From contig NZ_JWIO01000029.1 of the NCBI RefSeq assembly GCF_001017755.1, forward strand, positions 11,289-49,065: DNA of 37,777 nt, given 5' to 3'. The translations under genes and the position numbers were made by a program. Below the pieces are notes generated by a model. The model saw only the letters and a program-made list of their open reading frames with translations. It was not told where the DNA came from and ran no database searches. Shown here piece after piece: positions 4,550 through 25,400 of the stretch; within the stretch, counting starts at the first letter, position 1, and each line of letters begins with the position of its first letter. Source of the DNA: Protofrankia coriariae (GTDB taxonomy: Bacteria > Actinomycetota > Actinomycetes > Frankiales > Frankiaceae).

Positions 4550-4669
4550 CGGCCAACTCCTGTCCCGCGCTCTTCTGTCCCGCCGACGTCGCCGGCCGCC
4601 ATCGGGGCGGAGGGTGGTGCTGTGCGGCGGTGTGCCGGCGACACCGGGCTGCCGCGGGACGGGTCATGG

Positions 4670-5404
4670 TCACGGCTCTGTCCCTGCGGTGGCGGGGGTC
4701 TGGTCCCAAGCGGCGGCCTCGACGATGGTGTCGAGGTGCAGGTCGTCGTCCCACTGGTAGTGGCCGCTGACCCTCGCGGCGATCAGGGCGATCGCCAGGG
4801 CCCGGACCAGCACCTGCCCCAGCGGGTCCGGAGCGGCGGCAGGCCCGGCGGATCCGGACCGGCCACGGCCGGGAGTGGCCGGATCGTGATCGGGAGGGAT
4901 GCCGGTGAGGCGGTAGCCGGCGCAGACGGCCGGCAGCGTCGCCGGTGTGGGATGCGGGCCGTGGGAGGTGTCCAGTAGCCGGGCGAGACCGCGTCCGCTG
5001 GCGCCGTCCTGCCAGGCGGCGGCGACAGCGGTGATCCCTCGCAGGGGCCGGCCGTCGGCGGCGGCGGCCAGGCGGGCCAGGTCGTCGGCGAGGCGGTGGC
5101 CGGCGAGAATCACGGCCCGGCGGCGGGCCTGGACGAGCAGCCCGTCAACCATCGCGACGACCGCCGGGATCTCCGCCGGATCGTCGACGGCGAGGGCGTG
5201 GAAACCGAACCGCAGCGCGGCGTCGCTGACCAGCAGCGGGCACGCCCGCGGCAGCCGCAGGTAGACGGCCCCCACGGCCATCGGCGGGTCGTCGGCGCCG
5301 CCGGCGACAGCGACGGCGGCCAGCAGAGGCATGCGCTCGGGGAAGGGGCGCCGCGACGCACCGAACGGGGTGTCCGCCCAGCCCAGGTTGCGCGCCTCAT
5401 GCAT
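4670..5404 (-). CDS. Unknown protein, faint RNase H-fold exonuclease resemblance
   Basis: A 244-aa protein. The start ATG at 5404 overlaps the stop of the radical SAM gene (ATGCATGA), so it is translationally coupled to it. Residues about 95-155 contain V-I-L-A-G-H-R-L-A-D-D-L and later L-L-D-T-S-H, which faintly recall the exo II and exo III motifs of DEDD 3'-5' exonucleases, but a clear exo I D-x-E is not visible. I therefore do not assign a function. Tight coupling to the radical SAM gene suggests it works with it, perhaps as a partner or substrate-binding protein. Confidence 0.65.
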   Translation of the reverse strand: MHEARNLGWADTPFGASRRPFPERMPLLAAVAVAGGADDPPMAVGAVYLRLPRACPLLVSDAALRFGFHALAVDDPAEIPAVVAMVDGLLVQARRRAVILAGHRLADDLARLAAAADGRPLRGITAVAAAWQDGASGRGLARLLDTSHGPHPTPATLPAVCAGYRLTGIPPDHDPATPGRGRSGSAGPAAAPDPLGQVLVRALAIALIAARVSGHYQWDDDLHLDTIVEAAAWDQTPATAGTEP

Positions 5405-6437
5405 GGACGCTCCCGGCCGGGACGGGCCGCGCGGGCGGCCGGTCGCTACGCGCCAGGGTGCGGATCGACTGGCCCAGGTACTTGGCGTAGTGATTGCGCT
5501 GGAACCGGTAGCGCTGCCAGAGCGCGGTAATCGGCTCGTCGAGGAGGCTGCCGAGCGGTTCCAGCAGGTCCGGGGCGGTGTAGACCGGCCAGGCGCTGGC
5601 CGTCCCACCCGGCCCGACGACGATCATGTGGCCTTCGGTGGCCGGGGTCCACGCGGTCAGCCGCAGCGCCGGCCGCCAGTCGTGCACGGTGCGCAGCTCG
5701 GTCAGCCGCTCGAACGCCGCGGTGGCCTCCTCGAGGCTGAGGAATTCGTGGCCGGCGAGGTCGAGCGCGTTGCCCTTGCGCAACGGCAGGATGAGTTTGA
5801 GTTTCCCGGCGTCGAGCACGTCGGCGATCTGGTAGGTGAACGGCAGCGCTGCCAGCGTCGAGCGGTAGACGACCGCGGACAGCGACAGCGGCAGGCCGGC
5901 GTCCTGGAACGCCCGCACCCCGGCCAGGACCGTGTCGTAGTCACCGCGGACCCGGTTCGTCGTCGCTCGTGGGCCTTCCAGCCCGACGTTCACGAACGCG
6001 ATCTTGCCGGTCAGGTGGTGGGCGTGTTGGATGCCGCGGGTCGCGTTCGTGGGGACACCGAGGACGGTGCCGGTGAACATGTCGACGATGTCGATGAAGT
6101 CCCGGCGCAGCAGCGGTTCCCCACCGGAAAGGAACACCCGGGGCACCCCGGCCAGGTTGTCTCGGACGCGTTCGAGCACGGCGAGGCTGGGATCGGGCTC
6201 CTGCAACGTCTCCGAGCAGAACGAGCAGTCGAAATTGCACCGTTTGGTGACCTGGAGAATGACCGAGAGCGGGCCGGCCGCGGCGTCGACCACCGCGTCC
6301 AGGTCCTGCGGGCCGGCGAGGCTGAAGTGATGCCCGTCGGTGAAGACCACGGGTGCGCCCGCACGCAGGCGTGTCTCGCCGGGGACCGGCGGCGCCGCTG
6401 CGGTTTCGATCACGGGTATGGGGGTAGAGGCGATCAT
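5397..6437 (-). CDS. Radical SAM enzyme without visible SPASM cluster
   Basis: A 346-aa protein. The 4Fe-4S motif CxxxCxxC is C67-N-F-D-C71-S-F-C74, preceded by L-Q-V-T-K-R; the SAM-binding G-G-E-P is at 105-108. No cysteine cluster follows in the C-terminal half, so auxiliary clusters are not supported. The fold resembles peptide-modifying enzymes of the MoaA/PqqE group. ATG 6437 was chosen because AAGGAA lies 4-10 nt upstream; the frame is open further upstream. It is followed by an overlapping gene of unknown function. An IS256 remnant separates it from the MFS gene, so it was probably once contiguous with the 7267-11200 operon. Confidence 0.88.
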   Translation of the reverse strand: MIASTPIPVIETAAAPPVPGETRLRAGAPVVFTDGHHFSLAGPQDLDAVVDAAAGPLSVILQVTKRCNFDCSFCSETLQEPDPSLAVLERVRDNLAGVPRVFLSGGEPLLRRDFIDIVDMFTGTVLGVPTNATRGIQHAHHLTGKIAFVNVGLEGPRATTNRVRGDYDTVLAGVRAFQDAGLPLSLSAVVYRSTLAALPFTYQIADVLDAGKLKLILPLRKGNALDLAGHEFLSLEEATAAFERLTELRTVHDWRPALRLTAWTPATEGHMIVVGPGGTASAWPVYTAPDLLEPLGSLLDEPITALWQRYRFQRNHYAKYLGQSIRTLARSDRPPARPVPAGSVHA

Positions 6438-6684
6438 CGGTTCCTTCTTGACGTGGTCGCGTGCGGTGAAGCAGCAGCCAACCGGCCAGCCCTGTCCTGA
6501 CGGCGTGCTGCCATCGGACGCTGAACACCCGTCAGCCTCCCAAGTGGGCGTACGGGCAGTCATTCCCCGTAGAGGGAAGATGTGCTTCGTACCTGTGCAC
6601 CCCCGCTGACCTGCCCAAACAGGCACCGGGGAGCCTGCATGTTCCACGCGGGAGCAGAGAATCGTTCGGCTGCTTCCCCGTCGC

Positions 6685-7233
6685 CACGGCAAGCACCGGG
6701 GCGGCCATGCCGCGGCGCTTGCCGTCGCACAGCAGGTCGACCCACGACTCGGTGGACTCGCGGTAGCCGTCAGCCAGCGCGACGAGTTTCTTGCGGCCGT
6801 CGGCGCGGACGCCGATCATCACCAGCAGGCACAGCCTGTGTTCGGCGAGGCGGATGTTGACGTGGATGCCGTCGACCCACAGGTAGACGAAGTCCACATC
6901 GGACAGATCACGCTCGGCGAACGCGCGCTGTTCAGCCTTCTACGTCTCGGTGAACCTGGTGATCACTACCGACGGTAGGTCCTTCGCCGAGCCGAGGAAT
7001 TGGCCCAGCGCGGGCACGAAGTCACCCGAGGATAGCCCGTGCAGGTACAGCGGCGGCAGCACCTTTGTGATCTTCGGGGTCTTGCGCGCCAACGGCGGCG
7101 GAGTCGCCGAGGAGAACCTCATCCGCTCGCCGGTGGCGGGATCGACGCGCTTGTCGTTCACCCGCGGCGCGGTGACCTTGACCGCCCCGGCACTGGTCAG
7201 CACCTCCCGCGACCGACGCGCGGTGTGGTGTAT
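6685..7233 (-). pseudogene. IS256-family (Mutator) transposase fragment
   Basis: An internal piece of an IS256-type transposase read right to left. Upstream part: R-E-V-L-T-S-A-G-A-V-K-V-T-A-P-R-V-N-D-K, then L-Y-L-H-G-L-S-S-G-D-F. Downstream part: D-F-V-Y-L-W-V-D-G-I-H-V and A-D-G-Y-R-E-S-T-E-S-W. The two parts are in the same frame but separated by an in-frame TAG after T-R-F-T-E-T. Both ends of the usual roughly 400-aa protein are missing. It is therefore a decayed insertion lying between the MFS and radical SAM genes. Confidence 0.85.
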
Positions 7234-12975: not shown

Positions 12976-14605
12976 AAGTTAACGGCTCTGCCAAGATTCC
13001 GGTGGTGACAGGCCGTCGTCGCGGTGACAAGCTGGCAACTGTGTGACGCCGAGCTGCTGAAGACTGTCTTTCCTCAGCTGGCCGCGGTGCTGGTCCAGCG
13101 CGTTGTCGATGAGGGGCAGAGGGTGCGGGTCGTTGCCCGGACCCGGGCGGATCCGGTGGCCTGTCCGCGCTGCGGGACGCTCACCGCGCGGGTGCACGGC
13201 TATCACCGGCGCTGGCTCGCCGATCTTCCGGTCGGGGGCAGGCCGGTGGTGATCGAGCTGACCCTGCGGCGGCTGGTGTGCCCGAGCCCGGACTGTTCCC
13301 AGCAGACGTTTCGGGAGCAGGTACCCGGACTGGCCGAGCGATACGCCCGGCGCACTCCTCACCTGGGGGCGCTCATCAGCGCGGTCGGCGTGGTCCTGGC
13401 CGGGCGGGCGGGGGCACGGCTGCTGTCGGTGTTCGCGGTGGCGGTCAGCTGCTCCACCGTGCTGCGGCTGGTGATGGCACTGCCTCTGCGCATGTCGGCG
13501 GTGCCCAGGGTGCTCAGCGTGGACGACGTCGCCCTGCGGCGACACCGCCGGTATGCGACCTTGCTGATCGATGCCGTCACCCACCGTCGCATCGATGTGC
13601 TCCCGAACCGGAAGGCGGACAGCCTGGCGGCGTGGCTGCGTGAGCATCCTGGGGTTCGGGTGGTGTGCCGTGATGGGTCGTTGTCCTATGCGGAGGCGAT
13701 CCGCCAAGGCGCCCCCGACGCCGTGCAGGTCAGCGACCGCTGGCACCTGTGGAAGAACCTCGGCGAGGCCGTGGAGAAGACCGTGGTCGCGCACAGCCGC
13801 TGCTGGCATGCCGGACCGCCCCGCACGATCACTGCCCGTGAGGAACACACGCGCAGCCGGCACGCCGCCGTCCACACCCTGCTCGACGAGGGCGTCGGGC
13901 TGCTGGAGTGCGCCCGCCGCCTGGGCTGGGCGCTGAACACCGTCAAACGCTATGCCCGGGCCGACTCGGCCGAGGCTCTGCTGCGTCCCCCGCAATACCG
14001 CCGCACGCTGGTCGATCCCTACCGCGACCATCTGCGCCGCCGCCTCGCCGACGAGTCCGGCGTGGCAGTCACCCGGCTCCTGGCCGAGATCCGCGAGCAG
14101 GGCTATCCGGGCAGCGCCACCCTGCTCGTGCGCTACCTCAACCAGGGACGCGCCGACCCCGAACGCATCCCGCCGTCCCCGCGCCGTCTGGCCGCCTGGC
14201 TCATGAGCAGGCCCGAGCACCTGCCCGATCATCGGCGGCGGCACCGGGACGACCTGGTCGCCAGCTGCCCGCAGATGACCGCCCTGGCCGCCCGGATACG
14301 CGCGTTCGCCGCCCTGCTCACCCACCACTGCGGCCAGGACCTCGACATGTGGATGAAAACCGTACGCGACGACGACCTGCCCTTCCTGCACGCCTTCGTC
14401 ACCGGGCTCGACACCGACCACGACGCCGTCGTCGCCGGACTGACCCTGCCTTACAGCAACGGCCCCATGGAGGGCGCAAACACCAAGGTCAAGCTGATCA
14501 AGCGGCAGATGTACGGCCGCGCCGAGTTCCCTCTGCTCCGCCAGCGCATCCTGCTCTCATGACCACGCTCCGTTACCACCGGAATCTTGGCAGGGCCAAG
14601 TTAAC
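12976..14605 (+). mobile_element. Intact ISL3-family insertion sequence with 8-bp target duplication
   Basis: The element proper is 12984-14597 (1614 bp). Terminal inverted repeats start GGCTCTGCCAAGATTCC on the left and GGCCCTGCCAAGATTCC on the right; they match over 23 bp with one mismatch. Both ends are flanked by the direct repeat AAGTTAAC (12976-12983 and 14598-14605), the 8-bp target duplication expected for ISL3. One transposase gene occupies nearly all of it. Intact ends and ORF indicate recent insertion. Confidence 0.93.
13024..14562 (+). CDS. ISL3-family transposase
   Basis: A 512-aa protein with a GTG start. The N-terminal zinc-binding region is C-P-R-C-G (about 40-44) with a later C-P-S-P-D-C-S. 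The DDE domain follows: V-L-S-V-D-D-V-A-L (first Asp), V-V-C-R-D-G-S (second Asp) and S-N-G-P-M-E-G-A-N-T-K-V-K (Glu), the ISL3 C-terminal signature. Length is at the upper end of the family, with an extra region around 280-400. It is complete and in frame, so the element may be active. Confidence 0.93.
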   Translation: MTSWQLCDAELLKTVFPQLAAVLVQRVVDEGQRVRVVARTRADPVACPRCGTLTARVHGYHRRWLADLPVGGRPVVIELTLRRLVCPSPDCSQQTFREQVPGLAERYARRTPHLGALISAVGVVLAGRAGARLLSVFAVAVSCSTVLRLVMALPLRMSAVPRVLSVDDVALRRHRRYATLLIDAVTHRRIDVLPNRKADSLAAWLREHPGVRVVCRDGSLSYAEAIRQGAPDAVQVSDRWHLWKNLGEAVEKTVVAHSRCWHAGPPRTITAREEHTRSRHAAVHTLLDEGVGLLECARRLGWALNTVKRYARADSAEALLRPPQYRRTLVDPYRDHLRRRLADESGVAVTRLLAEIREQGYPGSATLLVRYLNQGRADPERIPPSPRRLAAWLMSRPEHLPDHRRRHRDDLVASCPQMTALAARIRAFAALLTHHCGQDLDMWMKTVRDDDLPFLHAFVTGLDTDHDAVVAGLTLPYSNGPMEGANTKVKLIKRQMYGRAEFPLLRQRILLS

Positions 14606-14657
14606 GGTGTAACGGTGGGTTTTCAGTCTGTTACTTGCGGCCGGCGGACAGGCGTCC

Positions 14658-14801
14658 GTCGAAGGCGAGGTCGAAAGGACGATGGCCTGGCTCGGCGGCT
14701 ACCGCCGCCTCACCGTCCGCTACGAACGCAACGGCCATAACTTCCTCGGATTCCTCACCCTGGCAGCGACGCTGACCTGCTGGAAGAAACTGGCCACGTG
14801 A
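14658..14801 (+). pseudogene. IS5-family transposase C-terminal remnant
   Basis: About 47 codons in frame encode V-E-R-T-M-A-W-L-G-G-Y-R-R-L-T-V-R-Y-E-R and then F-L-T-L-A-A-T-L-T-C-W-K-K-L, the usual end of an IS5-type transposase including the catalytic Glu region. Everything upstream is missing. It lies 52 bp right of the ISL3 target duplication and 21 bp from the stop of the JAB-E1 gene, marking the left edge of the ubiquitin-like island. Confidence 0.8.
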
Positions 14802-14822
14802 GACACGTTCTTAGTAGTAGCG

Positions 14823-16277
14823 TTAAGCCCCCCGTGAGAGCGCCCGTCGGAGCCGAGTGACGGGGCGGGCCTGTCGCGCGCGGCGTTCGGCTTGGATATG
14901 CCGGGCGGCAGTGTGTTCGCCCGTCAGAACGAGGCGGTCGTCGCCAGCTGCGACGGCGGCCTCGAAGGCGCAGTCCTTCTTCGTCGGAAAATGGAGGTGG
15001 TCGAGTGTGTGGGTGGATAGGGAGTAGCTGAGTGGGCCGGGGACACCGAAGCCGCTAGGGGTCACGGTCAGGCTGACGAACTGGGCCAGGATGCTCGCGC
15101 TGACGCCCGCGGCGAGGACGGCGACGTTCTGCCGCTTGGGTAGTGCCTCGGGGTCTGCACCGTTGATGTAGGCGGGATCGTCGAGGAGGCCCAGCTTGTC
15201 TGTCTGGATCTCGCCTGCGTCCAATTGTTTGTTGCAGCAGAGACAGGGTTGTCCTGGTAGCAGGACGTGGGTACGCCACGTCGCGTTCCTCATGGTGCCG
15301 TCGTCGAAGGTGTCGATACCGATGCCGCCGTCGATGACGGGTATCAGGTCGGCGTACGCGAGGGTGTTGAGCACACCGCGAGGCCAGGGCCGGTCGACGC
15401 AGCTGATCACGATGTCGTAGTCCAAGGCCGCAGCCAGTCCGGCCGGGTCACAGATGCTCGCATCGAGCTCGACGATCTTGGGGTTCGCGGCGGTGGCTGC
15501 TCGGACCATCAACCGTCCGGCGACCTCGACCTTGCTTCGGGCCAGCCGAACGTCTGTGGCGGTCGCGCCTACCAGCCGGTCGAGGTTGACGATCTCCACG
15601 CTGTCGAAGTCCATCACGCCGACCTGTATGAGGCCGGTGGCGGCGAGCCTCAGCCCAACATCCAGCCCTACGCTGCCGGCCCCGACCACGAGTACCCGGG
15701 TGCGGGCGAGGCTGGCGTGGATCTCCTCGCCCCAGGCTGAGACGGTGCGGTCCTGCCTGTCGTTGCTCTTCGGTGCCGGCCGGAGCTGGTCGTTCCAGGT
15801 GACCCGGAAATGGTCACCCACGACCCGGACCGACTCACCGTGCGTCGGGACTCCCACGGCATCCCACACACGGCACGACCAATCCCCGTTCCCGGCAAGA
15901 GTCATTCCGACCAGCGGCTTGCCGGTCACCTGCTGAACGAGGTGGGCGTAGGACCGCTCGGCGTCATGGTCCGGACGGGACATCAGCTGCCATCCCCGGC
16001 TCCCGGGGTGGGAGTGCAGCGCTACGACACCTCGACCGAGCGAAGCAGCCTGGGCTGCCGCCCGGACGAAGTAGTCGCCGGTGAACGACGCGTTGCCATG
16101 GACAGCCCGCTCGCCGCGCTCCGGTAGCAGCGCGGCGTTTACCAAGGCGGTAGTTCTGGTCGAGCCGGTGGAGGTCGCGTACGTCGCCAGGCACACGTCT
16201 TCCTGGCCGTCGGCTCGGAGCAGATGCCGGCTGAGCTCGTTGTCGATCGTGCCGGGCATCGCTGCGGAGAAGGTCAT
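14823..16277 (-). CDS. JAB deubiquitinase-ThiF/E1 fusion
   Basis: A 484-aa two-domain protein. N-terminal JAB/MPN metallopeptidase: H88-S-H90-P, then S100-R-P-D103 (the JAMM H-x-H-P-x-S-x2-D motif). C-terminal ThiF/E1 adenylation domain: G-A-G-S-V-G at 199-204, N-L-D-R at 231-234, C293 in S-C-V-D-R-P-W as a candidate active-site cysteine, and C345/C347/C348 as part of a metal site. E1 adenylates and thioesterifies a ubiquitin-like C-terminus; JAB trims or removes it. The start overlaps the E2-like stop (ATGA). It is the last gene of the operon; the IS5 remnant follows at once, so a further gene may have been lost. Confidence 0.9.
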   Translation of the reverse strand: MTFSAAMPGTIDNELSRHLLRADGQEDVCLATYATSTGSTRTTALVNAALLPERGERAVHGNASFTGDYFVRAAAQAASLGRGVVALHSHPGSRGWQLMSRPDHDAERSYAHLVQQVTGKPLVGMTLAGNGDWSCRVWDAVGVPTHGESVRVVGDHFRVTWNDQLRPAPKSNDRQDRTVSAWGEEIHASLARTRVLVVGAGSVGLDVGLRLAATGLIQVGVMDFDSVEIVNLDRLVGATATDVRLARSKVEVAGRLMVRAATAANPKIVELDASICDPAGLAAALDYDIVISCVDRPWPRGVLNTLAYADLIPVIDGGIGIDTFDDGTMRNATWRTHVLLPGQPCLCCNKQLDAGEIQTDKLGLLDDPAYINGADPEALPKRQNVAVLAAGVSASILAQFVSLTVTPSGFGVPGPLSYSLSTHTLDHLHFPTKKDCAFEAAVAAGDDRLVLTGEHTAARHIQAERRARQARPVTRLRRALSRGA

Positions 16278-16636
16278 GCCGCTTCCTGAAGAACGCTCCG
16301 GACGTGCGCCAGCCATGCCTGCGCCGGCTCCTCGGCGTCACCCCAACCGGCGACCTGGCGGGAGTGCCGCACCCACCCGGGCAACGTCTCATCCATGTTG
16401 ATGTTGGTGTTCGTCAGCGCCACCGTCGCGGGGAGGTGGATCCAGTGAGGCGGCACGGCAGGCCATGCTCCGAGTTCGGACATAGCTACTCCGGTCTCCA
16501 CGTCGGTTGCCCCTGACTGGGTCGCCGCCGCGACTGTGAAGACGACGACCGAGGCTGTCACCGTCGTCTGGATGTCGCACCGGAGTAGACCGGCTATGAA
16601 GGCGTCGGCGCCCACGGTCGCGACGGCGGAGGTCAT
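16274..16636 (-). CDS. E2/UBC-like protein (prokaryotic E2 family E type)
   Basis: A 120-aa protein. The C-terminal half has the order P-x-V-P-P-H-W-I-H-L-P, then G-W-V-R-H-S-R-Q, then G-W-G-D and a final W-L-A-H-V-R-S-V-L helix. This matches the pattern of prokaryotic E2-like family E proteins found beside ubiquitin-like and ThiF genes. The only cysteine is C20, N-terminal to that core, so whether a classical thioester cysteine exists is unclear. The start overlaps the ubiquitin-like stop by 1 bp (TGATG) and the end overlaps the JAB-E1 start. Role inferred: accepting the activated ubiquitin-like protein from E1. Confidence 0.75.
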   Translation of the reverse strand: MTSAVATVGADAFIAGLLRCDIQTTVTASVVVFTVAAATQSGATDVETGVAMSELGAWPAVPPHWIHLPATVALTNTNINMDETLPGWVRHSRQVAGWGDAEEPAQAWLAHVRSVLQEAA

Positions 16637-16893
16637 CAGGCGACCTCTGCTCGCTGCCGGATCGACACGAACTTCTCCCGCGGGTGCACCTCGACAGGGT
16701 CCGTGTCCTTGAACCGGTGGACGTCGCCGTGCCCGCGGACGACGGCGAGGTCGTACCCGTTCGGGTTCAGGCCGGCAAGGCGGAGCAGGTCCCCTGCCGT
16801 TCTGTGTCGATCGGGATCGACGTCGAACGGGCGGCCGTCAATCGTGATCTGCACGGTCCGGTGCCGCCCGTCTCGTGCTGCGTCGCTCGTCAT
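16636..16893 (-). CDS. Single-domain ubiquitin-like protein (multiubiquitin family)
   Basis: An 85-aa beta-grasp protein. V-Q-I-T-I-D-G-R-P-F-D-V-D forms the first hairpin, then T-A-G-D-L-L-R-L-A-G the helix, then Y-D-L-A-V-V-R-G and F-V-S-I-R-Q. This matches the multiubiquitin domain (Multi_ubiq), but only one copy is present. It ends R-A-E-V-A with no Gly-Gly, so either a non-glycine terminus is used or processing exposes an internal residue. ATG 16893 was chosen over GTG 16899 because AAGGAGG lies 5 nt upstream. It is the first gene of the conjugation operon, divergent from the XRE gene. Confidence 0.85.
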   Translation of the reverse strand: MTSDAARDGRHRTVQITIDGRPFDVDPDRHRTAGDLLRLAGLNPNGYDLAVVRGHGDVHRFKDTDPVEVHPREKFVSIRQRAEVA

Positions 16894-16914
16894 GAGCACC
16901 TCCTTGTCTCAGCA

Positions 16915-16928
16915 AAGCGACATCGCTT
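16915..16928. promoter_or_regulatory. Palindromic operator candidate AAGCGACATCGCTT
   Basis: Perfect 6-2-6 inverted repeat, 22 bp upstream of the ubiquitin-like ATG. A half-site (ATCGCTT) recurs at 17014-17020, just before the XRE start codon. Position and symmetry fit binding by the divergent XRE repressor at both promoters. Inference from sequence only. Confidence 0.55.
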
Positions 16929-17022
16929 CACTGTGGACGTGATCCTGGCACACCGATGCGGCGCTGCGCAACATCGGGGTGACGGGGCAGCAGAGCGCCG
17001 TTCGTCGGCTACCATCGCTTGT

Positions 17023-17565
17023 ATGGGACAGCCCGGATCTCCTGTGGCCTCGGGCGCCATGCCTGAGGAGGAGGCTGGACGGACACGCCCGGCGGAGCGG
17101 CTCGACGCCGCGAAGCTCGGTGCGCTCATTCGCGATCACCGTGGTCGAAGATCGCTGAGGCAGGCTGCGGCCGAGGCCGGTGTCAGCGTCAGCACCATGT
17201 CGCGTGTGGAGGCGGGTGCACAGCCAGATCTCGCGTCGTTCACGGCCCTCTGTGCCTGGGTGGGCGTCTCACCGAGCCGCTTCTTCACCCCGATCGCCGA
17301 GCGATTGGATACCCCGGTGGAAGTCGCGATCGCGCACCTCAGCGCCGATCCACGGCTGGCACCGGAGCACGCCTCGAGCATTGCATCGGTAATTCGCCAG
17401 ATGTACGATGCCCTGGCTGCCCAGGTCGAACCAAATCGAAGTCTTGTGGCATGCCACCTCCGTGCCGCGTCGACAATGCGGCCAGGAGTCCCCGAAAGGC
17501 TTGGATCCATACTCGTCGACATCCACCGCGAGCTAGAGAAGCGAGTCGAAAGCGGCCAGCTATGA
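17023..17565 (+). CDS. XRE-family repressor
   Basis: A 180-aa protein. The HTH spans about 30-85 (L-G-A-L-I-R-D-H-R-G-R-R-S-L-R-Q-A-A, then V-S-V-S-T-M-S-R-V-E-A-G). The C-terminus (about 100-175) is helical and probably dimerises. Its stop overlaps the ImmA/IrrE start (ATGA), so the two are made together. By analogy with DdrO-IrrE and phage ImmR-ImmA pairs, this would be the repressor cleaved by the protease. ATG 17023 places the HTH near the N-terminus; the frame stays open upstream into the ubiquitin-like gene, which is not meaningful. Confidence 0.85.
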   Translation: MGQPGSPVASGAMPEEEAGRTRPAERLDAAKLGALIRDHRGRRSLRQAAAEAGVSVSTMSRVEAGAQPDLASFTALCAWVGVSPSRFFTPIAERLDTPVEVAIAHLSADPRLAPEHASSIASVIRQMYDALAAQVEPNRSLVACHLRAASTMRPGVPERLGSILVDIHRELEKRVESGQL

Positions 17566-18128
17566 GCCTACCGCGCGGATTCAAAGCCAACGCCGAACGT
17601 GAAGCGCTTCGCCTCCGAGCGGAAATGGGGCTGCGGCAGACCGACGCCCTTGACGTCAGCACTCTCGCTACCCATCTCGGCGTCAAGATTGTAAGCGCTG
17701 GCGACCTAATAGAGATGTCGCGGCTAGAAGAGATCGAACGTATTCAGGCCTACTCGTTCTCCGGGGCCACGTTCGAGATCGGCGGTCGTCAATTCGTGAT
17801 CACTAGCCCGCTGCGGACGCCTGGCCGACGTGCCAGTGATATCGCGCACGAGCTCTCACACATCCTTCTCAAGCATGAACTTTCTGAGATGCGCGAGATT
17901 GACGGAATCCCGTTTCGTACGTGCAGGCCAGAGGAAGAGGAGCAGGCCACGAACTTCGGCGGCACGCTCCTGCTCCCAAGACCGCTGCTAGTTTCGGCGG
18001 CCCGGCAAGGCCTGACACACGCCGAGATCGCCGATCGGTACCAGGTGACCATCGAGATGGCACGGTTCCGGTACAATTCGACCGGCGTAGGACGTCAGGT
18101 CGGCCAGTTTCAAAGAGCGGTTGGTTAG
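17562..18128 (+). CDS. ImmA/IrrE-family metallo-endopeptidase
   Basis: A 188-aa protein with zinc motif H96-E-L-S-H100 in the I-A-H-E-L-S-H-I-L-L context, followed by the family's E-x-x-A-x-x-F segment (E-E-Q-A-T-N-F-G-G-T-L-L-L-P), which holds the third ligand. A C-terminal Y-Q-V-T-I-E-M-A-R-F-R segment resembles the helical region that touches the repressor. Proteins of this family cleave XRE-type repressors after DNA damage or phage-related signals. Coupling to the XRE gene and divergence from the ubiquitin-like operon imply control of that operon. Base composition is clearly AT-richer than the surroundings. Confidence 0.9.
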   Translation: MSLPRGFKANAEREALRLRAEMGLRQTDALDVSTLATHLGVKIVSAGDLIEMSRLEEIERIQAYSFSGATFEIGGRQFVITSPLRTPGRRASDIAHELSHILLKHELSEMREIDGIPFRTCRPEEEEQATNFGGTLLLPRPLLVSAARQGLTHAEIADRYQVTIEMARFRYNSTGVGRQVGQFQRAVG

Positions 18129-18505: not shown

Positions 18506-19213
18506 TCATTCCTCTGGGCCTGAGGCAACATCTTCCTTGCTGTCTGCACTCAAGGAGTGAAATAGGCGCACGGCCGCTATGATTGCTTCATGTTGCAGCG
18601 CTAGATCGCGGCGGAGATTTCCCTCATCGTAGATATCATCGCCGATGAAGCTAAGAACTGGAACCCAGTCGCCATCCCCAATTCTATCTGAAGCGATCGT
18701 TGCCGGCGAGTGGATCACGTGGTTTCTTCGCCTTATCGCGCCATCGATAGCGGTCAACTCTGTCGCCCATTTTTCCTTGGCTTCGCCCAATAGTCGACGA
18801 ACCTCATGCAGCAATTGTCCCGCAGTCCTGCGTTCGACATTTAAGGACTTATCGAAGTGGAGGGCGATCTTTCCTAGAACGGCTTCGGTCTCTGCGCACT
18901 GGGTCGCCACCAAACCGCGCAAGCGATGCATATCCGAAGCCGCGCCGTCGTCGTGGGGCGCATATAGATCAAACTCATCATATTCTGGATACAAGTGATC
19001 CCACACGGTTTGCCACGACACGGTCTTCTCGCCAAATTTTGGCTCGACCCAGAGCTCCTCGTCTTCCCATATATTCGATTCGAAAACTTCTACTTCACTG
19101 AAGGCGTTCGCCTCTCGTCGCGATATCTCGACTTTGTCGCCACCGTCGCTATAGTTGTCCATGTTCGCTTTTATCATTTCCTCTATGGGGTCGAAATTAA
19201 GAGGGTGTCTCAT
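18506..19213 (-). CDS. HEPN-like protein (putative RNase/toxin-type domain)
   Basis: A 235-aa acidic protein. The N-terminus (1-90) is rich in Asp/Glu and aromatic residues. The C-terminal half is helical and contains A-I-R-R-R163-N-H-V-I-H168-S, matching the R-x4-H motif (often R-N-x3-H) of HEPN domains, many of which are RNases in defence and toxin systems. Codon use is AT-richer than neighbours, as in the ImmA/IrrE gene, suggesting shared acquisition. No good ribosome site is seen at ATG 19213; ATG 19237 is an alternative, and the IS5 remnant abuts the 5' end, so the promoter may be damaged. HEPN assignment rests on one motif. Confidence 0.55.
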   Translation of the reverse strand: MRHPLNFDPIEEMIKANMDNYSDGGDKVEISRREANAFSEVEVFESNIWEDEELWVEPKFGEKTVSWQTVWDHLYPEYDEFDLYAPHDDGAASDMHRLRGLVATQCAETEAVLGKIALHFDKSLNVERRTAGQLLHEVRRLLGEAKEKWATELTAIDGAIRRRNHVIHSPATIASDRIGDGDWVPVLSFIGDDIYDEGNLRRDLALQHEAIIAAVRLFHSLSADSKEDVASGPEE

Positions 19214-19247: not shown

Positions 19248-19478
19248 GTGGATGACCGCCTTGCTCTGCGGCTGGTACCGGATGAGCTCTGGGAGCTCGT
19301 GGAGCCCTTGCTGCCTGTTTTCCCTGCGGCGTGGTCAGGGTAGCGGGACACGGCGCCGGTGTCGGATCGGGCGGTGTTCACCGCGGTGGTCTACGTGTTG
19401 ACGTCGGGCTGTGCGTGGCGGTTGTTGCCGCCGTCGTTCGGGGTGATGGTCCCGACGGCGCATCGCCGGTTCAGAGCC
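19248..19478 (+). pseudogene. IS5-family transposase N-terminal remnant
   Basis: From GTG 19248 the frame encodes L-V-P-D-E-L-W-E-L-V-E-P-L-L-P, then an in-frame TAG, then T-A-P-V-S-D-R-A-V-F-T-A-V-V-Y-V-L-T-S-G-C-A-W-R, the typical N-terminal domain of IS5-type transposases. It breaks off near H-R-R-F, where IS30 sequence begins. Dead by stop codon and truncation. Confidence 0.85.
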
Positions 19479-20191
19479 AATTCTCCGACGACCCGGCCAT
19501 GCAGGCCGCGACCGAGACCATCTACCAGGCCCTCTACCGGCCCGAACGCGGCGGCCTGGAGCGCGACACCGCCACGAACCTCCGCACCCGCCGACGGTCC
19601 CGCCGCCCGCGACGCCGTCCTGACCAGCGCGCCACCCGCTTCGCCGCCCCCGGCACCCTGATCACCCAGCGGCCCGCCGAAGTCCAGGACCGGATCCAGC
19701 CCGGTCACTGGGAAGGGGACCTCATCGTCGGCCAGGGCAACCGGTCCGCCATCGCCACTCTGGTCGAACGCTCCACCCGCTACCTGATGCTGCTGCACCT
19801 GCCCGGCGGGCGCGGAGCCGACCAGGTGCTCGACGCGCTCGTGCGCGAGGTCTCCGGCCTGCCCATCCCACTGGCGCGTTCACTCACCTGGGATCAGGGC
19901 AGCGAGATGAGCCGCCACGACGAGTTCACCGCGGCCACCGGTGTCCCGGTCTACTTCTGTGAGCCTGCCAAGCCCTGGCAACGCGGCTCGAACGAGAACA
20001 CGAACGGGCTGCTGCGCCAGTACTTCCCCAAGGGCACCGACCTGTCCGTCCACACCGCGTCCGATCTGGCGGCCGTCGCTGCCGAACTCAACGCGCGGCC
20101 CCGCAAGATCCTCGGCTGGACGACTCCGGCGAGTCAGCTCGATAAGCTCGTCGCAGCACTCGACCTCCCGGATGTTGCAATCATCGGCTGA
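19479..20191 (+). pseudogene. IS30-family transposase, 5'-truncated
   Basis: About 237 codons open with F-S-D-D-P-A-M-Q-A-A-T-E-T-I-Y-Q-A-L-Y and continue through the DDE domain: G-H-W-E-G-D-L-I-V-G (first Asp), T-W-D-Q-G-S-E-M (second Asp) and R-G-S-N-E-N-T-N-G-L-L-R-Q (Glu). The C-terminus is intact, but the N-terminal HTH region is missing and replaced by the IS5 remnant. The right end of the element probably lies near 20251, where the regulator remnant becomes recognisable. Confidence 0.85.
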
Positions 20192-20629: not shown

Positions 20630-21412
20630 TCATCCGGGCATATTGCCGAAGACGGCTTCCTGCGCGGCCCGCGCGAGTGTGGCCTGGGTGGTCGCTGCGA
20701 GCCCGATCCGGTTCCAATGGAAGATCACATGTAGTGCGATGACCGCGCGTATTCCCCGCGTGAGATTGCCGTTTTCCCGCAGGCTCCGGAGTGATCTTCC
20801 TGCCTCGTGGAACGACGCGAGCCAGTCGCCGCCGATGAGGTCTGCGCGGGCGTGACCGAGGAGGAGGTGGCGCACGTCGCTGGTGAAGGATGCCCATATC
20901 CGCGGGTCGGGTGGTACTTCGGCGAGGCCGGAGCGCTGCTCGGCCACTCGTGCCCACACGTCGCCCTGCTCGTTGATGTCCAGTCCCGCGGCCCGCATGA
21001 GCGCGGTGCACAGCACGAGGGAGCGTTCCCGCCGGTCGGTGCGGCCGTCGCCGAGGGCGGAGAGCAGGTGGCGGCTGTCGGCGTGGAACAGCGTGTGGGC
21101 CAGGTCCATACCGGCCGGTCCGCCGAAGGCGTGGGTCTCCGGTTCGTAGATGTCGCGGGTCCAGGTGACGCCGTTCGTGAGCAGGGGATGGAGCGGGTCG
21201 GCGGCGTTGCTGCCGTGGCCGTCCGCCGGGTCAGCGAGCAGGTAGCGCACGCGCCACGGGCCCTTGCGGATGAACCACCAGGAGGTGATGAGACCGTTGG
21301 CCTCGGCCGACGGAAGGATTCCGGCCAGGTGGGCGATGGCTTGGCGTTCCCGCTTAGCGGGGTCCTGGGCAGGGTAGGTGATGTTCACCTGCTTCCACGG
21401 GGTTTCTTCCAT
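20630..21412 (-). CDS. Stand-alone thiopeptide-type bacteriocin biosynthesis (SpaB_C-like) protein
   Basis: A 260-aa protein. The start W-K-Q-V-N-I-T-Y, then S-W-W-F-I-R-K-G-P-W-R-V-R-Y-L-L and later F-H-A-D-S-R-H-L-L-S, parallel the C-terminal elimination domain of LanB enzymes (compare W-W-F-I-R-Y in the LanB of this cluster). Such stand-alone domains occur in FxLD and thiopeptide clusters. It lies 15 bp after lanC, so it is the last gene of the operon. It could assist glutamate elimination or catalyse a further step; the cluster's LanB already has its own domain. Confidence 0.82.
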   Translation of the reverse strand: MEETPWKQVNITYPAQDPAKRERQAIAHLAGILPSAEANGLITSWWFIRKGPWRVRYLLADPADGHGSNAADPLHPLLTNGVTWTRDIYEPETHAFGGPAGMDLAHTLFHADSRHLLSALGDGRTDRRERSLVLCTALMRAAGLDINEQGDVWARVAEQRSGLAEVPPDPRIWASFTSDVRHLLLGHARADLIGGDWLASFHEAGRSLRSLRENGNLTRGIRAVIALHVIFHWNRIGLAATTQATLARAAQEAVFGNMPG

Positions 21413-21427
21413 GGTGGGGCCTTTCCG

Positions 21428-22525
21428 TCAGCGGAGCAGGAGGCCGGCGTCCCACGAGGTCGTCCTGGTTCCGGCGGCGGCCAGGGCGGCACCGGCCGAT
21501 CCCACCAGGAAACCCGAGGGCTCGTCGGCTTGGGCGGGGGCGTTCTGGTGCAGGAGCAGCGGCTGGGTGAGAGGGATCGGGATGAGGGCGTCGGCGGCGA
21601 TGCTGCGGGCGGTTGCGAGCAGGCCGCCGGTCCCGTGACACAGGCTCCGGTCGATGAGACGGCCGAGCTGCTCCGGATCGTTCAGGCAGTCGAGGAAGGC
21701 GGTCTCGGCGTGCTGTTGACGGGCGGGGTCGTGCAGGGCGCGGGCTGCGAGTTGCAGGGCACGGGTGATGCCTGGAATTCCGTAACACCAGGAAGGTCTG
21801 AGCGGGCCCGGTTGGCTGGTGGTACCGCGGTCGATGTCGGCGAGCGTGACGATCTGTGGCCACCACGAGCCGCCACCGGCCTTCTGCTGCTCCCAGGCGT
21901 CCAGCCACCGGCAGATGCGTGTGATCGCATCCGTTTGTCCGTCGACCTCGATGCCATCACGGAAAGCGATGGCCAGGAGGGCGAGCGGGCCGACGATTCC
22001 GTGGGCGATCGAGTGGTTGCTGTGACCTCCGATGGGCCCTTTCTGACTGCGATTGGGGCCGGTTGGGCACCACCAGCCGGGAAGGCCGTCGACGGGCTCG
22101 GTGAGCCGTACCAGGTAGCCGAGGACGTCGCGGAGCAGATCATGATCGCCGCTGCGGCGCAGCGCCACGGCCAGGCCGGTCAGGCCGCCGATGAGGTCGT
22201 ATTCGGCCATCAGCGGCCGGCGGCGCTGGTCGATCCTGGCATGCGCGGCTTCGAGACGATGCCGGGTGACCATGGCGGTGCCCGCGTCCGCGGTGGCCAT
22301 GGCCGTGGCGAGGCCGGGCCGGTCGGCGACACCGTGCAGGACGAAGGACAAAGCCGGAGCGCCGTAGTAAAGGCTGGCTGTGGCCGCGATGCTGACGCCG
22401 TCGGCGACGGCCTGTATCAGGGTCGCGTTCGCTTGGTCCCAGGTGGCCGCGCCGCCTCGGGCCTGCTCGATGTGAAGGAGGGCGATGCCGGCCGCGCCGC
22501 CGCTGAGGGACTGCCCCGGCTTCAT
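21428..22525 (-). CDS. lanC: Lanthionine synthetase C-like cyclase (LanC)
   Basis: A 365-aa LanC-type protein. The conserved zinc-site motifs are present: S-W-C-Y-G (first Cys) and S-L-C-H-G-T-G-G (second Cys and His). The preceding H-S-I-A-H-G-I-V-G-P segment matches the family's catalytic His region. LanC adds Cys thiols to dehydroalanine/dehydrobutyrine to form lanthionine rings. The start overlaps the lanB stop (ATGA). Length is near the usual 400 aa. It should cyclise the 48-aa FxLD-type precursor encoded at 25554. Confidence 0.92.
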   Translation of the reverse strand: MKPGQSLSGGAAGIALLHIEQARGGAATWDQANATLIQAVADGVSIAATASLYYGAPALSFVLHGVADRPGLATAMATADAGTAMVTRHRLEAAHARIDQRRRPLMAEYDLIGGLTGLAVALRRSGDHDLLRDVLGYLVRLTEPVDGLPGWWCPTGPNRSQKGPIGGHSNHSIAHGIVGPLALLAIAFRDGIEVDGQTDAITRICRWLDAWEQQKAGGGSWWPQIVTLADIDRGTTSQPGPLRPSWCYGIPGITRALQLAARALHDPARQQHAETAFLDCLNDPEQLGRLIDRSLCHGTGGLLATARSIAADALIPIPLTQPLLLHQNAPAQADEPSGFLVGSAGAALAAAGTRTTSWDAGLLLR

Positions 22526-25335
22526 GACACGCCCCGGGCAAGCAGGGTGTGAGCGGTAGCGCGGGCCAGCCGCAGGCAGTGACGCTCGGAGACCAGGTCA
22601 ACTCCGATCATCCGGGCGTGGTGCAGGTGCAGCAGGTCGGCCAGGACCCGGTCGGGGTCGAGGCCGTCCTGGTCGACACGGGCCCGGTAGTCCACCAGGG
22701 CCCGGCGGAGCCGGTCGTTCTCGTACAGGGGGACTGTCCGCATCACCTGCTCACGGCCACCGCTCACCGGTCGGCCGGCGGTTGTTGTCGCCGGGTCGCC
22801 CCGGTGCTCGACGTGATCGATGAGCCAGGCATGTCCGTTTCCGGTGAAGCCGTCGGCGATGCCGATCAGTCCGGCGGCGGTTGCGACTGTCCGGTCGCCG
22901 GACAGGCGCTGGACGGCCGCGTGGGAGTCGGCGGCGAACACCGCTTCGGCCGCCGCCAGGGTCGGACCTGTGCCGAACCGGGTCTCAGGCCGGTAGGTGT
23001 GGATCGTGTAGTCGCGCAGCAGCGCGTGAGCGCGCAGACGGTCCGCCCACCGTCCGAACTGCCGGACGGCTGCCCCGAAACGGTCCGCGCCGCGCAGCGG
23101 GACGCGTAGCCGGAGATGGGGTTCAGGTTGGTGATAGCGGATGAACCACCAGCGGTCCTGACTGTTCTGGTTGTCGCCGACCAGTTCGGCGAGCCGGGCA
23201 AGGATCTCATCGTCGCGGCCGTAGACCTTCACATACAGCCATGGCGATAGGCCCGGCCGGTGCTCCACGGTGCTGGCGGCCCGCACCGGGCGCGGGTGTC
23301 TCGGCTCGATCGGGTTCGCGGCTCGGGCGAGCGTGACGACGAGCTCGTGGGGTCTGCCTCCGAACCACCCGGGCCGGTCGCCGGCCTCGGTGAGGACCGC
23401 GTACGGCTGCCGGTCAAGCTGGCCGCGAAGGAGCGCGAGGTGGGCGGGCTCGTCGAGGTCGATGCGGATCCGGACATCGTCGGCGCCGAGCAGGACCTCG
23501 GACGGGATCCGGTAGGTCTTCCGCAGCCGCTCCCAGGCATCCCGCCAGTCAGGAAAGAGCGCGGCGCGGGCCGGGAGGCTCCTGGCCGTGATGATCCATC
23601 GGGCGGGATGAAGGATCGACCGGCCGTACCGGATGCGCGGGAGGAACGGGAGTTCGCGGGCGACGGGTCCCCAGGTGAACGGGCAGCAGGGCGCTGAGAA
23701 GGCCGTCCAGATCTCTGTGAGGAACCGCGCGAGCGGTTGCTGGCCGCCAGGGAGGTCGACCGCGTTGAACAGCATCGGCTCGACCGGGCAGCCGCGGGAC
23801 AGTGACACCAGCCAGAGCCGCCGCGCGTCGCCCGTGACCGCCAGGTCGTCGAGATCGAGGCCGGGGTTTTCCTGGTATTCCCCGAGGGGCAGGACCGGCA
23901 GGATCTCGGGAACCCTGGCCAGGGCCGTCATCTTCCGAGCCAGCGGTGGCCCGGAGATCTGCGTCATGATCGCTTCGGGCATGGCGGTTGGCAGCGCGGC
24001 GTACGCGCGGCGGAAGCGCTCCCGCTCGGTGTCGTCGAGCAGGTGCAGGAACCGGCCGACGGTCACCCCGGCGTGCCGGGCCCCGCTGATGACGGTCAGC
24101 GTGAACGCTCCCCGTTCCAGATGACCCAGGGTCTGCGCCGCCAGGCTGAAACGTAGCTCGGTGTGCGGGACCGGCGGCCGATGCCCGACGGTCAGCCTGG
24201 CGATCAGATCGTCGTCCAGGACCACGTCGGCACGGCCGTCGAGGGCGGCCTGCTGGGCGATCTTCGCCAGCATCACGTCGCGAGCGGTGAGCAGCTGCGG
24301 CTCGCGCCGATGGGACCCTCGGTATCCAGCCGGCAGGCCCAGCCCGGACGCCGCTGCCAGTTCTCGGACGGGCACCGCCGCGCCCGGCCCGTACCGTTCG
24401 AGGAACGCCTGGTGATAGGCCCGCCACCCCGGCATCTCCGGCGCGACCAAGGTAAGGATCGATGCGGCGTGCTCGGCCTCGCGCAGCACCGCCGCAGGTA
24501 AGGCCACCGAGCAGCCGACTCCCACATCGGCCACGGTCTGTCCGGACGAGTCCGGAAGGTCGGCGTAGCGGGCGAGGTGCGTCGCCGGGTCGGTCACCGT
24601 CATCGGGGGGCGCACAGCCGAGAGCAGCACGCGGTGGGCCACCAGGTCAGCCAGCATTTCCTCGATGACCGCCAGGTCGACGGTGGGTGCCTCGACGGCC
24701 AGCTTGGCGGTCAGGTCGCTGAACCTGATCGGCCGTCGCGCCGCTTCCACGGCCAGCCGCAGCGGGCGGGTCAGGTCCACCTCGGCATCCCGCAGGTGGC
24801 CCTCGGCGCTCACACCCGGAACGATCCACGAACGGCCGCGGGCGAACCCGAGGCCGTTCGTCACGACCGGGACCGTCCGCAGGGTGGCCAGCCGCTGCTC
24901 GATCCGCTCCGCCTGCTCGTCCAGGAACAGCCCGTCCGGCCGGATCACGACCCGGTGGTCACCGCCCCACGCGGCATGCGCGCGGGTGCTGAACTCCACC
25001 GGGGCGATGCCCGCGAACAGCCCGAACGGCGTCGCTCTGCTCGTCCAGCGCAGCAGATACCGCGTCAGCGTCTCTACCAGCCGCCGCACCGGCCGCGTCG
25101 CGCTTCGGGCAGCGGGCGCAGGCGAGGCGAGCTGCCGCTCCACCTGGGCGGCCAGCTCCGGTGACGCGGTCCGCACCGCGTCGGCGAACCCGCGCAACGC
25201 CCATACCCGTCGGAGCCACACCTGCCAGCCAGGGACGTCGTCGCCGGTCAGGTCCGGCCACGGCGGTAGTTCCAGATCCGCGGGGATCGTCGTGGTCCTG
25301 ATCAGTGCCGCGTCCACGGCCTCATACGCGCGCAC
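22522..25335 (-). CDS. lanB: Full-length lantibiotic dehydratase (LanB)
   Basis: About 937 aa. The N-terminal glutamylation domain (first two thirds) includes R-W-T-S-R-A-T-P-F-G-L-F-A-G and Y-G-R-S-I-L-H-P-A-R-W; the C-terminal SpaB_C elimination domain includes W-L-Y-V-K-V-Y-G and W-W-F-I-R-Y-H-Q-P-E-P-H-L-R-L-R. It dehydrates Ser/Thr using glutamyl-tRNA. I chose GTG 25335 because GGAGG lies 5 nt upstream; the frame is open to ATG 25398, but that start would place the intergenic hairpin inside the coding region. It overlaps lanC by 4 bp. Confidence 0.93.
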   Translation of the reverse strand: MRAYEAVDAALIRTTTIPADLELPPWPDLTGDDVPGWQVWLRRVWALRGFADAVRTASPELAAQVERQLASPAPAARSATRPVRRLVETLTRYLLRWTSRATPFGLFAGIAPVEFSTRAHAAWGGDHRVVIRPDGLFLDEQAERIEQRLATLRTVPVVTNGLGFARGRSWIVPGVSAEGHLRDAEVDLTRPLRLAVEAARRPIRFSDLTAKLAVEAPTVDLAVIEEMLADLVAHRVLLSAVRPPMTVTDPATHLARYADLPDSSGQTVADVGVGCSVALPAAVLREAEHAASILTLVAPEMPGWRAYHQAFLERYGPGAAVPVRELAAASGLGLPAGYRGSHRREPQLLTARDVMLAKIAQQAALDGRADVVLDDDLIARLTVGHRPPVPHTELRFSLAAQTLGHLERGAFTLTVISGARHAGVTVGRFLHLLDDTERERFRRAYAALPTAMPEAIMTQISGPPLARKMTALARVPEILPVLPLGEYQENPGLDLDDLAVTGDARRLWLVSLSRGCPVEPMLFNAVDLPGGQQPLARFLTEIWTAFSAPCCPFTWGPVARELPFLPRIRYGRSILHPARWIITARSLPARAALFPDWRDAWERLRKTYRIPSEVLLGADDVRIRIDLDEPAHLALLRGQLDRQPYAVLTEAGDRPGWFGGRPHELVVTLARAANPIEPRHPRPVRAASTVEHRPGLSPWLYVKVYGRDDEILARLAELVGDNQNSQDRWWFIRYHQPEPHLRLRVPLRGADRFGAAVRQFGRWADRLRAHALLRDYTIHTYRPETRFGTGPTLAAAEAVFAADSHAAVQRLSGDRTVATAAGLIGIADGFTGNGHAWLIDHVEHRGDPATTTAGRPVSGGREQVMRTVPLYENDRLRRALVDYRARVDQDGLDPDRVLADLLHLHHARMIGVDLVSERHCLRLARATAHTLLARGVS

Positions 25336-25362
25336 CCGCACCTCCACCCATGAGCTGTGGGT

Positions 25363-25400
25363 GTGTGGCCCGGCCCCCTGCGCAGGGGGCCGGGCCACAC
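25363..25400 (-). promoter_or_regulatory. 18-bp perfect hairpin between precursor gene and lanB
   Basis: GTGTGGCCCGGCCCCCTG at 25363-25380 pairs perfectly with 25383-25400, leaving a nominal 2-nt loop. It begins 7 bp after the precursor stop. There is no U-tract, so it probably acts as a partial terminator or 3' stabiliser that makes precursor mRNA exceed lanBC mRNA. Confidence 0.8.

What the first reader, a model, noticed from the sequence alone, without database searches (positions are those of the whole stretch)
14823..18128. Ubiquitin-like conjugation operon under a divergent XRE-ImmA/IrrE switch
Seen: three overlapping genes encode a single-copy ubiquitin-like protein, an E2-like protein and a JAB-E1 fusion; the divergent neighbour is an XRE repressor coupled to an ImmA/IrrE protease. 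Known: multiubiquitin-E2-ThiF operons are established bacterial conjugation modules, some antiphage; ImmA/IrrE proteases cleave XRE repressors on stress. Inferred: the protease releases repression so the conjugation system is switched on by DNA damage or phage. This pairing of a conjugation operon with a protease-inducible repressor is the most system-like arrangement in the window.
Basis: partly seen in the sequence, partly recalled or inferred. Interest (0 to 1): 0.88.

Follow-up and report, generated by a model that had tools for sequence, protein, structure and literature searches.

The report
Bub ubiquitin-like operon with protease switch
An actinobacterium carries a compact bacterial protein-tagging operon related to eukaryotic ubiquitin, next to a repressor and a protease that probably switch it on; both the operon type (Bub) and this kind of pairing are already published, but this copy's protease lacks the known DNA-damage sensor domain.

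Summary
Window 14823-16893 (-) encodes a single-domain ubiquitin-like protein, an E2-like protein and a JAB-E1 fusion with overlapping ends. 17023-18128 (+) encodes a divergent XRE repressor and a short ImmA/IrrE protease. The operon belongs to the Bub (bacterial ubiquitination-like) kind: the E1 matches Citrobacter BubCD along its length (1.8e-31) and the Ubl model matches bacterial multi-ubiquitin and BubA structures. JAMM and adenylation residues are intact. The E2 has no conserved cysteine but an invariant Ser92; the Ubl ends in -VA instead of diglycine. The regulatory pairing is not new: PMC13373217 reports 219 of 544 Bub operons beside CapW or CapH+CapP. Here, 49 of 67 relatives with enough upstream sequence have an ImmA protease within 2.5 kb of the Ubl gene, and the regulator class changes about 30 times on the E1 tree, so the switch was recruited repeatedly. 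One inference needs weakening: this ImmA ends before the C-terminal domain that gives PprI its ssDNA sensing, and its repressor does not match the CapH model. Induction by DNA damage or phage is possible, not shown, and Bub has no demonstrated antiphage activity. New member of a known kind.

The parts
14823..16277 (-). BubCD-like protein, 484 aa: N-terminal JAB/JAMM isopeptidase domain fused to E1-like adenylating domain
   Evidence: Citrobacter BubCD 8.9e-16 by phmmer, 1.8e-31 by profile over about 400 residues; JAMM E26/H88/H90/D103, GxGxxG 199-204, D223, D225, R234, K249, D295 and C345/C348/C436 kept in the window and in 77-79 of 79 aligned sequences
16274..16636 (-). BubB-like E2 fold protein, 120 aa, no conserved cysteine; invariant Ser92-Arg93 and nearly invariant His67
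   Evidence: alignment of 84 sequences; AlphaFold2 pLDDT 93.2; best Foldseek matches TSG101 UEV and UFC1, weak (E 0.27 or more)
16636..16893 (-). BubA-like ubiquitin-like protein, 85 aa, one beta-grasp domain, C-terminus -EVA (no diglycine)
   Evidence: Multi_ubiq PF14452 1.4e-4; model pLDDT 87 matches bacterial multi-ubiquitin domains (E 6.6e-5) and Citrobacter BubA in complex with BubCD (TM 0.70/0.78); C-terminal -V[A/S] conserved
16894..17022 (.). shared intergenic region between Ubl and XRE, 129 bp (length depends on the uncertain XRE start)
   Evidence: sequence read
16905..16919 (-). conserved cis element CGCTTTGCTGAGACA in the Bub leader/promoter region, candidate repressor operator
   Evidence: CGCTTTGCTGA[GT]ACA occurs in 1.24 Mb of loci only in the window, L025 and L051 (=L005, same contig), always on the Bub strand upstream of Ubl; once in the 5.8 Mb genome
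16915..16928 (.). palindrome AAGCGATGTCGCTT overlapping the conserved element
   Evidence: perfect 6+2+6 dyad; alone not significant (about 0.25 such dyads expected in the region, my estimate)
17023..17565 (+). XRE-family repressor, up to 180 aa, HTH near residues 32-85 plus C-terminal region shared with L051, L057, L065 and L101; alternative starts 17044 (GTG), 17059 (ATG)
   Evidence: HTH_31 6e-8; no match to PADLOC CapH; alignment
17562..18128 (+). short ImmA/IrrE (M78) metalloprotease, 188 aa, HELSH; ends about 93 residues after HExxH, no GAF-like domain
   Evidence: Peptidase_M78 1.1e-14; PADLOC capP 1.3e-11 over profile positions 23-152 of 242 only; domain lengths

Best explanation
This is a Bub operon (BubA, BubB and a fused JAB-E1, BubCD). 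The E1 domain of BubCD adenylates the C-terminal Val-Ala tail of the Ubl. The Ubl is then passed to the cysteine-less E2-like protein, most likely as an ester on the invariant Ser92, and from there to a target protein. The JAB domain trims Ubl precursors and/or removes the tag. At rest the divergent XRE protein represses the Ubl promoter and its own. On stress the ImmA protease, whose gene overlaps the repressor gene, cleaves the repressor and the operon is expressed. Shown here: gene content and order, intact catalytic residues, homology to BubCD and BubA, recurrent linkage to ImmA proteases, and a conserved cis element. Inferred: conjugation, repression, cleavage and the inducing signal. The signal is open, because the domain that senses ssDNA in PprI is absent. 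Activation through another factor, as RecA is reported to do for ICEBs1 ImmA, is the likeliest substitute.
For: BubCD homology over about 400 residues with JAMM and adenylation residues invariant or nearly so in 79 sequences. Ubl model matches bacterial multi-ubiquitin structures and BubA bound to BubCD. E2 Ser92 84/84, Arg93 83/84, no conserved Cys. In Ubl-E2 fusions and C-terminally extended Ubls the V-[A/S] tail is kept and followed by extra residues (D or E in the seven fusions; HFHG, QLAG, GR in extended ones), as expected of a precursor cut after that site. ImmA within 2.5 kb upstream of Ubl in 49 of 67 loci (52 loci with hits in 176 kb) against 3 hits in 776 kb of other flank. The regulator class changes about 30 times on the BubCD tree and the split short form alone about 14 times, so linkage is not mere descent. 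The cis element is shared only with loci carrying a close XRE relative and is unique in the genome. Literature: Bub operons pair with CapW or CapH+CapP (PMC13373217).
Against: The XRE does not match the CapH model and ImmA matches CapP only in its protease core. No sigma-70-like promoter was found in the intergenic region. The palindrome alone is not significant, and the cis element is shared by only three independent loci, with L057 partly similar. The E2 structural match is weak. About a quarter of relatives with enough upstream sequence have no ImmA hit (L094 was separately found to have a divergent one).
Confidence: 0.75

Rival explanations
1. A true CapH+CapP-controlled antiphage operon: phage or damage makes ssDNA, ssDNA activates the protease, the repressor is cut, and the conjugation system protects against phage.
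For: CapP-like protease core; full-length CapP matches sit beside BubCD relatives L059 and L073, with a CapH match in L073; many Bub operons are reported with CapW or CapH+CapP; relatives on plasmids and beside defence-like genes.
Against: Window ImmA and its nearest relatives L051, L057, L065, L101 end 89-93 aa after HExxH, without the C-terminal domain; GAF-less PprI loses ssDNA binding and stimulation (PMC10904395); XRE has no CapH match; Bub not shown to be antiphage.
Confidence: 0.25
2. The XRE-ImmA pair is an independent module (a mobile-element or toxin-antitoxin-like pair) that merely neighbours the Bub operon and does not control it.
For: IS transposases lie on both sides; XRE-ImmA pairs are known in ICEs (PMC10233336).
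Against: About 75-fold enrichment of ImmA just upstream of Ubl and repeated independent recruitment; the cis element in the Bub leader tracks the XRE subtype.
Confidence: 0.1
3. The Ubl/E1/JAB set is a sulfur-carrier or small-molecule pathway, not protein conjugation.
For: Single-domain Ubl, no diglycine, no E3, no catalytic cysteine at a conserved E2 site; ThiF/MoeB are the best NCBIfam relatives of the E1.
Against: Dedicated E2-like gene in nearly every relative, full-length BubCD match, BubA-like Ubl fold.
Confidence: 0.07
4. The operon is a decaying remnant between insertion sequences.
For: Transposase gene and a further fragment end close to the BubCD stop codon (14562-14823).
Against: All five frames intact, every catalytic residue kept, Shine-Dalgarno and overlapping stops/starts kept.
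Confidence: 0.05

Closest known systems
Bub (bacterial ubiquitination-like) operons, e.g. Citrobacter BubA and BubCD
   Same: JAB-E1 fusion homologous along about 400 residues, BubA-like beta-grasp Ubl, E2-like protein without conserved Cys, switch genes next to the operon (PMC13373217)
   Different: One Ubl domain instead of several in the solved multi-ubiquitin proteins; this branch has the C345/C348 pair, which the aligned Citrobacter stretch lacks; actinobacterial branch
CapH+CapP (CBASS and Bub controllers)
   Same: XRE + M78 protease pair placed to control an adjacent operon
   Different: Protease lacks the C-terminal third of the CapP profile; repressor does not match CapH
ImmR/ImmA of ICEBs1 and TnSmu1
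   Same: two-gene XRE repressor + HExxH protease module (PMC10233336)
   Different: neighbours a conjugation-type enzyme operon instead of an integrative element; no sequence comparison made here
PprI(IrrE)-DdrO of Deinococcus
   Same: M78 protease with a repressor as the presumed substrate
   Different: PprI has a GAF-like domain required for ssDNA activation (PMC10904395); absent here
Bil (bacterial ISG15-like) antiphage systems
   Same: Ubl, E1, E2 and JAB in one operon
   Different: E1 and JAB are one protein here, E2 lacks a conserved Cys; PADLOC E1-E2 models match only the E1 core

Membership tests
Bub | E1 (and here JAB) homologous to BubC/BubCD with intact active sites | tested here: met
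Bub | BubA-type beta-grasp ubiquitin-like protein | tested here: met
Bub | E2-like protein without a conserved catalytic cysteine | tested here: met
   E2 fold itself only weakly supported
Bub | oxyester intermediates and protein conjugation (from my memory of Ye et al. 2026, not held in the library) | not testable with these tools
   needs biochemistry; invariant Ser92 is compatible
CapH+CapP | M78 protease with HExxH | tested here: met
CapH+CapP | CapP C-terminal GAF-like part | tested here: not met
   profile positions 23-152 of 242 only, about 93 aa after HExxH; L059/L073 match to position 240-241
CapH+CapP | repressor matches the CapH model | tested here: not met
   no CapH hit at E 0.1; L050 and L073 repressors do match
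CapH+CapP | ssDNA-stimulated repressor cleavage | not testable with these tools
   needs protein assay
ImmR/ImmA-like switch | adjacent XRE repressor and short ImmA protease | tested here: met
ImmR/ImmA-like switch | protease-dependent cleavage of the repressor | not testable with these tools
   needs protein assay
Bil | separate E1, E2 with catalytic Cys, JAB DUB (from my own knowledge) | tested here: not met
   E1 and JAB are fused; no conserved Cys in E2
antiphage system | protects against phage | not testable with these tools
   not shown for any Bub operon according to PMC13373217

The most novel reading that the evidence does not exclude
The split, GAF-less ImmA + non-CapH XRE pair is a separate, repeatedly recruited class of controller for Bub operons that responds to something other than free ssDNA (for example RecA filaments or a phage protein), so Bub operons are wired to several different alarms through interchangeable protease switches.
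Probability: 0.35. Interest if true: 0.6.

Novelty: new member of a known kind. Interest (0 to 1): 0.42.

Why it matters
It adds an actinobacterial branch of Bub operons in which the switch beside the same conjugation operon has changed about 30 times among ImmA-type architectures and other neighbours. That makes a clean comparative test of which signals Bub responds to. The conserved -V[A/S] tail, kept at the junction of Ubl-E2 fusions, gives a testable proposal for what the JAB domain cuts and how a diglycine-free tag is matured.

Tried and rejected
Bil membership was rejected: no conserved E2 Cys, and E1 and JAB are fused. CapH+CapP membership in the strict sense was rejected after positive controls (L059, L073) matched the PADLOC models fully and the window pair did not. 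ImmA truncation by frameshift was rejected, because relatives L051, L057 and L065 end at the same point. The palindrome as sole operator evidence was rejected as not significant. The sigma-70 scan found no promoter. No BubCD relative was found in phage genomes. The E2 profile finds no solved structure by sequence. Papers on Bub biochemistry (Ye 2026), BubA structures (Gong 2025) and CapH/CapP (Lau 2022) are not held, so they could not be read. First versions of some calls failed on input or script errors.
Full report
What is there. Between an ISL3-type transposase (13024-14562) and another transposase region on the right (about 19300-20190) lies a five-gene unit. On the minus strand: a ubiquitin-like gene (16636-16893), an E2-like gene (16274-16636) and a JAB-E1 fusion (14823-16277), each overlapping the next by 1 to 4 bases. 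On the plus strand: an XRE gene (about 17023-17565) overlapping an ImmA/IrrE gene (17562-18128). The exact XRE start is uncertain.

What the operon is. The JAB-E1 protein matches Citrobacter BubCD along its length: phmmer 8.9e-16, profile 1.8e-31 over about 400 positions. In 79 aligned sequences the JAMM residues E26, H88, H90 and D103, the nucleotide-binding GxGxxG, D223/D225, R234, K249, D295 and the cysteines C345/C348/C436 are invariant or nearly so, and all are present in the window. The Ubl is one beta-grasp domain. Pfam Multi_ubiq matches just below its cut-off (1.4e-4). The AlphaFold2 model (pLDDT 87) matches bacterial multi-ubiquitin domain structures (E 6.6e-5) and Citrobacter BubA bound to BubCD (TM 0.70/0.78). 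The E2-like protein has no family hit and no solved relative by sequence. A model from 42 sequences has pLDDT 93, and its best, weak, structural matches include TSG101 UEV and UFC1, both E2 folds. It has no conserved cysteine. Ser92 is present in 84 of 84 sequences, Arg93 in 83 and His67 in 77. This is what a Bub operon looks like. From memory, Ye et al. 2026 (cited in PMC13373217; not held here) report oxyester instead of thioester intermediates in Bub, which fits Ser92, but I could not check the paper.

The Ubl tail. Of 75 non-fused Ubl genes none ends in Gly-Gly; 39 end in VA, 16 in VS, 8 in TA. In seven loci the Ubl and E2 are one open frame. At the junctions the same tail is kept and followed directly by D or E (for example GPTPVS|ELP, APVS|DGT, TTVA|DGP), and three Ubls carry short extensions after it (VS|HFHG, VS|QLAG, VS|GR). 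I infer that the mature tag ends in Val/Thr-Ala/Ser and that the JAB domain trims the forms that are made longer.

Linkage to the protease switch. Eighty BubCD relatives were fetched from a collection of one genome per species. After removing near copies, 67 loci had at least 2 kb upstream of the Ubl; 49 of them have an ImmA-family protease within 2.5 kb, and a Pfam scan adds L094. Counted as density, 52 loci have a hit in 176 kb of this upstream zone against 3 hits in 776 kb of other flank. Three architectures occur: split XRE + short ImmA (the window's form), one-protein HTH-ImmA fusions, and ImmA with a long C-terminal part. L059 and L073 match the CapP model nearly end to end, and the L050 and L073 repressors match CapH. 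On the BubCD tree the regulator class changes about 30 times and the split short class about 14 times, with at least 10 forced by well-supported branches. The class labels rest on simple length rules, so these numbers are approximate. Linkage by descent alone does not explain this; repeated recruitment does. It agrees with the published count of 219 of 544 Bub operons beside CapW or CapH+CapP (PMC13373217), so the pairing as such is known.

The cis element. The element CGCTTTGCTGA[GT]ACA occurs in 1.24 Mb of loci only in the window (16905-16919), L025 and L051, always on the Bub strand upstream of Ubl. These loci carry close relatives of the window XRE. It occurs once in the 5.8 Mb genome, which points to a local, not a global, regulator. 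In the window it overlaps a perfect palindrome, AAGCGATGTCGCTT (16915-16928), which alone would not be significant. In L025 and L051 the element abuts a -10-like TACAAT/TACACT, so part of it could be promoter instead of operator.

What signal. [quoted passage not shown] The window ImmA stops about 93 residues after HExxH, matches only positions 23-152 of the 242-position CapP profile, and its nearest relatives stop at the same place, so this is not a local truncation. Its XRE has no CapH match. DNA damage can still be the signal through another route: ICEBs1 ImmA is reported to act after RecA-dependent damage signals (PMC10233336). The inducing signal therefore remains open.

Function. [quoted passage not shown] The relatives on actinobacterial plasmids (10 records), the IS elements beside the window copy, and defence-like neighbours in some relatives suggest mobility and a defence-island lifestyle, but no more. 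None of the other sampled genomes of the same genus or family reached 1e-20 with this BubCD, in keeping with horizontal acquisition.

Verdict. What is added here is the assignment to Bub, the repeated recruitment of ImmA switches within this branch, the GAF-less protease, the cis element and the V-[A/S] tail.

Noticed in passing
L071, L082, L091, L092, L097, L099, L102: Ubl and E2 encoded as one open frame upstream of BubCD; the -V[A/S] tail is kept at the junction and followed by D/E.
   Followed up: partly
L037 and L045, about 4000-7050: Instead of ImmA, the divergent XRE is followed in L037 by a Ser/Thr kinase that, with the next gene, matches PADLOC candidate PDC-M71A/B; L045 has genes of the same sizes. 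Possibly another kind of Bub controller.
   Followed up: partly
L111 831-3066, L110 5684-9203, L034 5199-7057: Some relatives have an annotated sigma factor with an ImmA gene (L111, upstream) or with an AAA ATPase gene (L110, downstream) next to Bub, so a protease acting on an anti-sigma factor is conceivable; L034 has a similar co-directional ImmA.
   Followed up: no
L022/L023 (G112:C1:952202-956274): A BubCD gene matched in two pieces about 2.6 kb apart, apparently interrupted by an insertion.
   Followed up: no
20630-25398 (window): Lanthipeptide-type biosynthetic genes: LanC-like 21428-22525, lantibiotic dehydratase 22522-25398, Lant_dehydr_C protein 20630-21412.
   Followed up: no
18506-19213 (window): A 235-aa protein in a stretch of lower GC with no family hit and no relative in the other Bub loci.
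   Followed up: partly
L008 and L012 (same family as the window genome): Much more distant BubCD relatives (27-29% identity) whose Ubl ends in -NS; L008 also has an XRE + short ImmA pair beside it.
   Followed up: no
E2 alignment column at window Thr84: 19 relatives carry a Cys at one E2 column near invariant Ser92; the window has Thr84 there.
   Followed up: no
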